Positions 30,581 to 31,816 of a stretch of 39,628 nt of DNA are shown piece after piece. The position numbers were made by a program, and so were the translations under genes. The DNA lies in contig JAHZJL010000240.1 in the NCBI GenBank assembly GCA_022600935.1, positions 1 through 39,628 of the forward strand, written 5' to 3'. Source of the stretch: Gammaproteobacteria bacterium (GTDB lineage Bacteria; Pseudomonadota; Gammaproteobacteria; Methylococcales; DRLZ01). The notes under the pieces are model-generated. The model saw only the letters and a list, made by a program, of their open reading frames with translations, ran no database searches and had not been told where the DNA came from. How positions within the stretch are numbered: the first letter of the stretch is position 1; each line of letters opens with the position of its first letter.

Positions 30581-30688
30581 CTATAGTCGTAACTGATTGA
30601 ATATTAGAATAATATTATGAAGTTAACTGATAATAAAAAATGTAAATTGCCGCACATCCAAGCGCTGTTCAGCTTGGATTAACTAAAG

Positions 30689-30705
30689 TGCGACAATTTG
30701 CCACA
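30689..30705 (+). promoter_or_regulatory. upstream direct-repeat element of sRNA copy 1
   Basis: TGCGACA-ATT-TGCCACA; 19-nt TGCGACAATTTGCCACATT is identical in copy 2, 22 nt between the repeat and TATAAT in both. Confidence 0.65.
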
Positions 30706-30727
30706 TTTTCTATTGGCAGTGAATTGC

Positions 30728-30733
30728 TATAAT
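30728..30733 (+). promoter_or_regulatory. -10 box of sRNA copy 1
   Basis: TGCTATAAT (extended -10), 7 nt before the conserved GACTGAGTT. Confidence 0.7.
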
Positions 30734-30740
30734 TACTATC

Positions 30741-30834
30741 GACTGAGTTGAAGCAATATTATTTTTGTTGCTTCTTTGCACGAAAGTGCATTTCCTCCTC
30801 TTGATGGCAGGGCGAAAGCTCTGTCATTTTTTTT
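30741..30834 (+). ncRNA. putative small RNA, copy 1 (about 94 nt)
   Basis: GACTGAGTT start; stem GAAGCAA/TTGCTTC; GCAC-GAAA-GTGC hairpin; open TTTCCTCCTCTTG; terminator TGGCAGGG..CTCTGTCATTTTTTTT; near-identical second copy downstream. Confidence 0.8.
30804..30834 (+). terminator. intrinsic terminator of sRNA copy 1
   Basis: ATGGCAGGG-cgaaag-CTCTGTCAT then T-tract; two G-U pairs. Confidence 0.8.
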
Positions 30835-30871
30835 GTCTTTTTTTCAGCTCAGGCTGTATTGCCTGATCTCA

Positions 30872-30888
30872 TGCGACAATTTGCCACA
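30872..30888 (+). promoter_or_regulatory. upstream direct-repeat element of sRNA copy 2
   Basis: TGCGACA-ATT-TGCCACA, identical to copy 1. Confidence 0.65.
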
Positions 30889-30910
30889 TTCCATCTTTTT
30901 TTTCAATTGT

Positions 30911-30916
30911 TATAAT
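30911..30916 (+). promoter_or_regulatory. -10 box of sRNA copy 2
   Basis: TGTTATAAT (extended -10), 7 nt before the conserved GACTGAGTT. Confidence 0.7.
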
Positions 30917-30923
30917 TTTAACC

Positions 30924-31012
30924 GACTGAGTTAGAGCAATGTGAATTGCTTGTTTGCACGAAAGTGCATTTCCTCCTCTTGGTGGCAGGGTTGGGAAACC
31001 CTGTCATTTTTT
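30924..31012 (+). ncRNA. putative small RNA, copy 2 (about 89 nt)
   Basis: GACTGAGTT start; stem AGCAAT-GTGA-ATTGCT; GCAC-GAAA-GTGC; TTTCCTCCTCTTG; terminator TGGCAGGGTT..AACCCTGTCATTTTTT. Confidence 0.8.
30983..31012 (+). terminator. intrinsic terminator of sRNA copy 2
   Basis: TGGCAGGGTT-ggga-AACCCTGTCA then TTTTTT; loop-proximal stem differs from copy 1 with pairing kept. Confidence 0.85.
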
Positions 31013-31142
31013 ATCTTTTCAAGATTCAGTTGTTCGATTGAGAAAGGGCAAGTGAATTCAGCTCATGATCTGCCAGTTCTTGTTTTATTGTGCTGGCTCG
31101 ATTCCATAAGAAATTGAATACTTATGTACGTTTAGCAAATAG

Positions 31143-31160
31143 CCTCCTCTTGACAGCAGG
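31143..31160 (+). repeat. degenerate third trace of the sRNA repeat
   Basis: CCTCCTCTTGacaGCAGGG matches CCTCCTCTTGRTGGCAGGG of copies 1 and 2; spacing 171 nt versus 178 nt between copies 1 and 2. Confidence 0.6.
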
Positions 31161-31204
31161 GTAATATATTCAATATTAAACTGCTTGACAGAAAACACCT
31201 GCCC

Positions 31205-31816
31205 TCAGGACGAAAAAGATACTCCAGTTTTATGAAAACCGCAATACCCATTCGGGTTTTTTGCTAAATATTGTTGATGATCCTGCTCAGCAAAGTAGTA
31301 AACCAGGAGAGGGCGAATCACTGTTGTCACTTCACCATAACCCGCACTGGATAAACGTTTTTGATAGTGCAGCCTTGACTGCTCGGCCTGTTCCTGTTGC
31401 TCTGCATTGACAGTCAATAGTATTGAACGATATTGGCTGCCGTTGTCATTGCCCTGACGCATTCCCTGAGTCGGGTCGTGAGCCTCCCAGAAATGGACCA
31501 ATAAGTCCTGGTAACTGATGATGCCAGGATCAAATACAATACGGACAACTTCTGCATGACCGGTTTTACCAGTGCAAACTTCCTTGTAATTCGGGTGCGG
31601 AGTGCTTCCGCCGCTATAGCCGACTGAAGTTGAATAAACACCGTTTAATTGCCAGAAATAACGTTCCGGCCCCCAGAAACAACCCAGACCCAGAACAGCT
31701 TGCTGATAACCGTCAGGGAAGGGCGGAATAATGGTATTGCCATTGACAAAGTGTGTTTTGTGAATGGTGAGAGGTTCCCAACGTCCGGGTAATGTAGCAT
31801 CGCAGATCACTGACAT
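31205..31816 (-). CDS. msrA: peptide methionine sulfoxide reductase A
   Basis: AVLGLGCFWGPERYFWQLNGVYSTSVGYSGG; FWEAHDPTQGMRQGND. Confidence 0.95.
   Translation of the reverse strand: MSVICDATLPGRWEPLTIHKTHFVNGNTIIPPFPDGYQQAVLGLGCFWGPERYFWQLNGVYSTSVGYSGGSTPHPNYKEVCTGKTGHAEVVRIVFDPGIISYQDLLVHFWEAHDPTQGMRQGNDNGSQYRSILLTVNAEQQEQAEQSRLHYQKRLSSAGYGEVTTVIRPLLVYYFAEQDHQQYLAKNPNGYCGFHKTGVSFSS

What the first reader, a model, noticed from the sequence alone, without database searches (positions are those of the whole stretch)
30790..30803. Invariant TTTCCTCCTCTTG segment resembles an anti-Shine-Dalgarno seed
Between the GCAC-GAAA-GTGC hairpin and the terminator, both copies (30791-30803 and 30969-30981) keep a predicted unpaired TTTCCTCCTCTTG. 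Its complement CAAGAGGAGGAAA is a ribosome-binding-site sequence. C-rich CCUCC seeds that mask SDs are known from several trans-acting sRNAs (e.g. alphaproteobacterial CCUCCUCCC 'cuckoo' RNAs, Xanthomonas sX13). Homology to those is not claimed. The seed is also the part kept in the degenerate third trace.
Basis: partly seen in the sequence, partly recalled or inferred. Interest (0 to 1): 0.72.

Follow-up and report, generated by a model that had tools for sequence, protein, structure and literature searches.

The report
Redox-box-driven anti-ribosome-site small RNA twins
The conserved CCTCCTCTTG stretch is the exposed, probably pairing segment of a previously undescribed small-RNA family found throughout the methane-oxidising order Methylococcales, which is probably switched by the RegB/RegA redox sensor and probably silences messages by covering their ribosome-binding sites.

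Summary
TTTCCTCCTCTTG is exact at 30791-30803 and 30969-30981, in the mostly unpaired linker of two tandem sRNA-like units, each with a promoter, 5' hairpin, linker and terminator. Relatives turn this into an order-wide sRNA family in Methylococcales: stems diverge, but a CU-rich linker (UCCUCCUCUU, CCUUCC or GCCUCCUCA) stays in the same place. In the window's genome it occurs three times, all driving copies of this sRNA. Across 61 genomes it is strongly enriched over a reversed-pattern control. In about 20 genomes the sRNA lies divergently beside regB-regA, the box resembles the RegR/PrrA/RegA site, and RegA-less genomes have almost lost it. Best explanation: RegA-controlled sibling sRNAs that mask Shine-Dalgarno sequences. 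The RegA link is strongly inferred; SD masking is plausible but unproven. Target candidates include pmoB (rank 1/81, 1/67, 2/92 in three genomes; not found in the window's genome) and glnA. A seed-target co-evolution test was inconclusive. No Rfam match and no published report of this sRNA was found.

The parts
30689..30705 (+). 17-bp imperfect palindrome TGCGACAATTTGCCACA of copy 1, probable RegA site
   Evidence: matches B. japonicum RegR consensus GNGRCRTTNNGNCGC at 14 of 15 positions (consensus quoted in PMC5506826)
30725..30733 (+). extended -10 element TGC-TATAAT of copy 1; predicted start of transcription near 30740
   Evidence: sequence; box-to-hexamer spacing 22 nt, same as in relatives; not found by the strict two-hexamer scan
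30740..30834 (+). sRNA copy 1, about 95 nt (start inferred from the -10)
   Evidence: fold z = -5.3; conserved in G001 and other families
30750..30774 (+). 5' hairpin of copy 1
30777..30790 (+). hairpin UGCAC-GAAA-GUGCA just upstream of the linker, copy 1
30791..30803 (+). exposed CU-rich linker (proposed anti-SD seed) UUUCCUCCUCUUG, copy 1
30803..30834 (+). intrinsic terminator (stem 30803-30828 plus T run) of copy 1
30872..30888 (+). 17-bp imperfect palindrome of copy 2, probable RegA site
30911..30916 (+). -10 element TATAAT of copy 2; predicted start of transcription near 30923
   Evidence: sequence; spacing 22 nt
30923..31010 (+). sRNA copy 2, about 90 nt (start inferred from the -10)
   Evidence: fold z = -4.1
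30955..30968 (+). hairpin UGCAC-GAAA-GUGCA, copy 2
30969..30981 (+). exposed CU-rich linker, copy 2 (identical to copy 1)
30981..31012 (+). intrinsic terminator of copy 2
31140..31190 (+). degenerate third trace: seed-like TAGCCTCCTCTTG without box, promoter or terminator; kept in the sister genome

Best explanation
The segment is the single-stranded targeting linker of a tandem pair of trans-acting small RNAs. Each sRNA is transcribed from its own promoter, whose upstream palindrome is most likely bound by RegA, the response regulator of the RegB/RegA redox two-component system. The sRNA ends at an intrinsic terminator and probably works with Hfq. The CU-rich linker pairs with purine-rich Shine-Dalgarno sequences (in some cases also the start-codon region) of a set of mRNAs and blocks their translation. 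Shown by computation: the architecture, its order-wide conservation, the fixed box-promoter geometry, the linkage to regBA and the near-complete co-loss with RegA. Inferred: transcription, direct RegA binding and its sign, Hfq dependence, and target repression.
For: Twins with promoter, stable fold and terminator. Same architecture in several families of the order, scan hits all labelled Methylococcales-type organisms. Box present 3 times in the own genome, each driving this sRNA. Box in 50 of 61 genomes with very few sites for the reversed control, and 22-23 nt before the -10 in 48 of 51 box-plus-terminator units. RegA-type regulator in 56 of 61 genomes; the five without keep one strict box between them (Fisher p = 0.003). 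sRNA unit divergent from regB in about 20 genomes. Own RegB and RegA have ActS/PrrB and ActR/PrrA as best NCBIfam hits. Hfq in the own genome. RegB/RegA works in Methylomonas DH-1 (PMC13274454). AAGAGGAGG-ATG sites about 3 times the control; pmoB ranks 1/81, 1/67 and 2/92 for its own sRNA.
Against: No transcript data. RegA binding to the box is untested; RegB and RegA score below the curated NCBIfam cut-offs. The box also precedes TonB-dependent receptor and HMA-domain genes in relatives, so it is not exclusive to sRNAs. In the window's own genome the sRNAs are not beside regBA. SD complementarity is expected for any CCUCC stretch. The swap test for seed-target co-evolution was inconclusive: pmoA, taken as control, did as well within families, and the pmoB site of RegA-less G029 pairs equally well. 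One family's sRNA-like units have no clear CCUCC.
Confidence: 0.7

Rival explanations
1. The RNAs are real and box-controlled, but the box belongs to another regulator (for example a metal- or oxygen-responsive factor); the sRNAs then belong to a metal-uptake or metal-sparing response, in role like PrrF or RyhB.
For: In relatives the same box precedes TonB-dependent receptor genes and an HMA-domain gene. RegA-less G033 keeps one box.
Against: Adjacency to regBA in about 20 genomes, co-loss with RegA, fit to the RegR consensus. In Methylomonas DH-1 TonB-system and feo genes are themselves RegA-dependent, so metal genes fit a RegA regulon too.
Confidence: 0.13
2. The linker is not an mRNA-pairing seed. 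It is a protein-binding or structural element, or it titrates something (ribosome or RNA-binding protein), and its resemblance to an anti-SD is incidental.
For: Complementarity to SD words is easy to get; the co-evolution test was inconclusive; family-specific variants differ in sequence.
Against: The exposed position, conservation while stems diverge, and persistence as CCUCC or CUUCC variants all fit an SD-pairing seed; analogous C-rich sRNAs act that way.
Confidence: 0.13
3. The repeats are remnants of a mobile or repetitive element without function.
For: Tandem repeats with a decayed third copy.
Against: Conserved across families with diverged stems, fixed promoter geometry and synteny; only three boxes in the genome.
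Confidence: 0.02

Closest known systems
RoxS/RsaE (Bacillus, Staphylococcus)
   Same: sRNA induced by a redox/NO-responsive two-component system (ResDE, SrrAB) with C-rich regions that can pair with SD sequences (PMC4409812)
   Different: Firmicutes; several C-rich regions; unrelated sequence, promoter box and regulator; single gene
PcrZ (Rhodobacter sphaeroides)
   Same: sRNA dependent on PrrA, the RegA orthologue, with a PrrA consensus site in its promoter; redox-driven repressor (review PMC8139620)
   Different: Alphaproteobacterial; targets photosynthesis mRNAs; homology not tested here
sX13 (Xanthomonas)
   Same: C-rich motifs needed to repress mRNAs with G-rich motifs at ribosome-binding sites (PMC3771888)
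   Different: Motifs lie in loops of three stem-loops; Hfq-independent; no RegA-type box described
CCUCCUCCC anti-SD sRNAs of Rhizobiales (SmelA075, SmelA099)
   Same: anti-SD word kept while stems diverge (PMC3927594)
   Different: word is CCUCCUCCC in the loops of three or four hairpins; here it is UCCUCCUCUUG in an open linker before the terminator

Membership tests
any Rfam 15 family | covariance-model score above the gathering cut-off | tested here: not met
   no match in the window; only chance-level matches at E up to 10 in 30640-31210
Rhizobiales CCUCCUCCC sRNAs | CCUCCUCCC in hairpin loops | tested here: not met
   the word here is UCCUCCUCUUG in a linker between two hairpins
sX13 | C-rich motifs in hairpin loops | tested here: not met
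   the CU-rich stretch lies in the linker, not in a loop
RoxS/RsaE | sequence and structure homology to RoxS/RsaE | not tested
   not compared directly; the Rfam scan found no family match in the window, but I did not check which families cover RoxS/RsaE
RegA/PrrA-controlled sRNAs (functional class, as PcrZ) | RegA-type site in the promoter | tested here: met
   box fits the RegR consensus at 14 of 15 positions, fixed spacing to the -10, linkage to regBA
RegA/PrrA-controlled sRNAs (functional class, as PcrZ) | expression depends on RegA | not testable with these tools
   no expression data available
trans-acting anti-SD sRNAs (functional class) | exposed CU-rich segment, own promoter, intrinsic terminator | tested here: met
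trans-acting anti-SD sRNAs (functional class) | seed-dependent repression of an SD-overlapping target | tested here: inconclusive
   pmoB ranks high but the co-evolution control failed; no experiment possible

The most novel reading that the evidence does not exclude
These sibling sRNAs are the post-transcriptional arm of the RegB/RegA redox switch in gammaproteobacterial methanotrophs: when the quinone pool or NADH is over-reduced, RegA turns them on and they block translation of pmoB and other C1, carbon or nitrogen assimilation genes, setting methane-oxidation capacity by redox state.
Probability: 0.22. Interest if true: 0.82.

Novelty: new member of a known kind. Interest (0 to 1): 0.64.

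Why it matters
Post-transcriptional control in methanotrophs is almost undescribed: searches of a library of 5.39 million open papers found no report of this sRNA, and the 2026 paper on RegB/RegA in Methylomonas DH-1 does not mention an sRNA. An sRNA family shared across the order, often sitting beside its probable redox sensor, gives a directly testable route from redox state to translation of central metabolic genes, possibly including the methane-oxidising enzyme itself.

Tried and rejected
Rfam: nothing. One strict composite pattern over 369 Gammaproteobacteria found only one genome, itself in the order; it missed several known Methylococcales members and, being strict, does not exclude diverged forms elsewhere. 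Seed-target co-evolution: the apparent covariation of linker and pmoB site (14- and 20-bp helices in two Methylothermaceae genomes) looked compelling, but permutation with pmoA as control and RegA-less genomes as negative control did not support it as specific. pmoB as the target in the window's own organism: rejected for now, since pmoB was not found there or in its sister genome. A MAFFT alignment for formal covariation counting proved unreliable because stem sequences diverge and gaps shift, so I rely on hairpins of different sequence at the same position; no covariance model was built.

Full report
WHAT IS THERE. Both copies of TTTCCTCCTCTTG are exact. They lie between metH plus a small glutaredoxin-like reading frame (named from its CxxC motif; no NCBIfam hit) and msrA, in two tandem units with a promoter, a 5' hairpin, the GCAC hairpin, the linker and an intrinsic terminator. 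The folds are far more stable than shuffles, and the linker is mostly open. The third trace at 31140 keeps the seed only. The sister genome G001 (contig DRLZ01000418.1, labelled a Crenotrichaceae MAG) has the same gene order, the same twins and the same trace.

FAMILY. A DNA search of 61 genomes of the order found the twins in G001 and weaker matches centred on the linker in other families. Reading those loci showed the same architecture each time. A pattern scan of 84,980 species genomes returned eight stretches, all labelled as Methylococcales-type bacteria (Methylothermaceae, Methylococcaceae, Methylococcales, Crenotrichaceae), which places the window in Methylococcales. Wider reading showed family-specific linkers: UCCUCCUCUU in several families, CCUUCC or CUUCC in another, GCCUCCUCA in part of a third, exposed and followed by a terminator. 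One family's sRNA-like units lack a clear CCUCC. The third copy in the window's genome has an unrelated hairpin sequence at the same position, followed by TTTTCCTCCTTCTTGA and a terminator, so structure and linker are kept while stem letters change.

CONTROL ELEMENT. Each unit begins with TGCGACAATNTGYCRCA, an imperfect palindrome, 22-23 nt before an often extended -10 (48 of 51 box-plus-terminator units; some loci overlap in origin). Its centre would lie near -43, where activators overlapping the -35 region bind (inference). In the window's genome this box occurs three times and all three drive this sRNA. Of 61 genomes, 50 have it, with very few sites for the reversed control pattern. In 19 genomes a strict box lies within about 2 kb of regA. 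Reading these loci showed an sRNA unit diverging from regB in about 16 of them, plus four genomes whose box differs by one letter. Full-length RegA-type regulators occur in 56 of 61 genomes. The five without keep one strict box between them, and that one is of the type that elsewhere precedes an HMA-domain gene (Fisher p = 0.003; genomes are not independent). The box fits the RegR consensus at 14 of 15 positions (consensus). The own genome encodes RegB and RegA (best NCBIfam hits NF033792 and NF033791, below the curated cut-offs), and its RegA matches the DNA-binding domain of the photosynthetic apparatus regulatory protein 1umq (PrrA, from my own knowledge). RegB/RegA works in Methylomonas DH-1, where it controls iron uptake and methanol growth; that paper mentions no sRNA (PMC13274454).

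TARGETS. Hfq is present. AAGAGGAGG upstream of ATG is about three times the reversed control in 12 genomes, as expected for any strong SD word. Genes behind such sites include glnA (both genomes of the window's genus), pmoB, a PQQ methanol dehydrogenase, a cytochrome-c-peroxidase-like protein and fructose-bisphosphatase (families confirmed for GlnA and the dehydrogenase and for pmoB, the others named by eye). Scored against sampled genes of the same genome, pmoB was the best or second-best partner of the sRNA in three families (1/81, 1/67, 2/92), while pmoA was ordinary. pmoB was first noticed in one of these families, so the other two are the independent tests, and its strong SD is a confounder. 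The swap test does not establish co-evolution: own pairs beat 19,995 of 20,000 free permutations, but that is confounded by descent; within families p is about 0.05, pmoA does as well, and pmoB in a RegA-less genome has a similar site. pmoB is therefore a candidate, not a demonstrated target, and it was not found in the window's genome.

MECHANISM. Most likely RegA controls the sRNAs and they repress translation of SD-overlapping targets. By analogy to PcrZ (PrrA) and RoxS/RsaE (ResD/SrrA) this would be a redox-driven repressor arm. The sign of RegA control is unknown.

NOVELTY. No Rfam match and no report in the searched literature. It is a new sRNA family, but of a known kind: a two-component-system-controlled sRNA with an anti-SD-like seed.

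Noticed in passing
L022:1501-1517 (G000:C198:2552-2568), sRNA on the minus strand: Third full-length copy of the sRNA in the window's genome, with the same box, a different hairpin sequence and a one-base insertion in the seed.
   Followed up: yes
window 31140-31190, minus strand: The degenerate third trace lies just past the msrA stop codon; the antisense strand there reads GTCAAGAGGAGGC, complementary to the seed, so an msrA 3' UTR could carry a target or sponge site. Kept in G001.
   Followed up: partly
L030, L083, L084, L086 and other loci of family f6: The same box precedes genes that look like TonB-dependent receptors (confirmed by Pfam for L030 only).
   Followed up: partly
L114 (G021), with the same box variant in other f5 genomes: A box about 100 nt before an HMA-domain (heavy-metal) gene; the same variant is the only box left in RegA-less G033.
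   Followed up: partly
L319:1773 (G057) and L328:1180 (G022): A box lies about 2-2.5 kb upstream of pmoB, possibly upstream of the whole operon, so direct RegA control of methane or ammonia monooxygenase-type genes is possible there.
   Followed up: no
L176:487-505 (G000:C215) and L146 (G001:C46): glnA ribosome-binding site AAGAGGAGGCTTAAATG identical in both genomes of the genus; candidate target.
   Followed up: partly
G000 and G001: No pmoB was found in the window's genome (85% complete) or its sister (91%), so these may not be methane oxidisers or the operon is missing from the assemblies.
   Followed up: no
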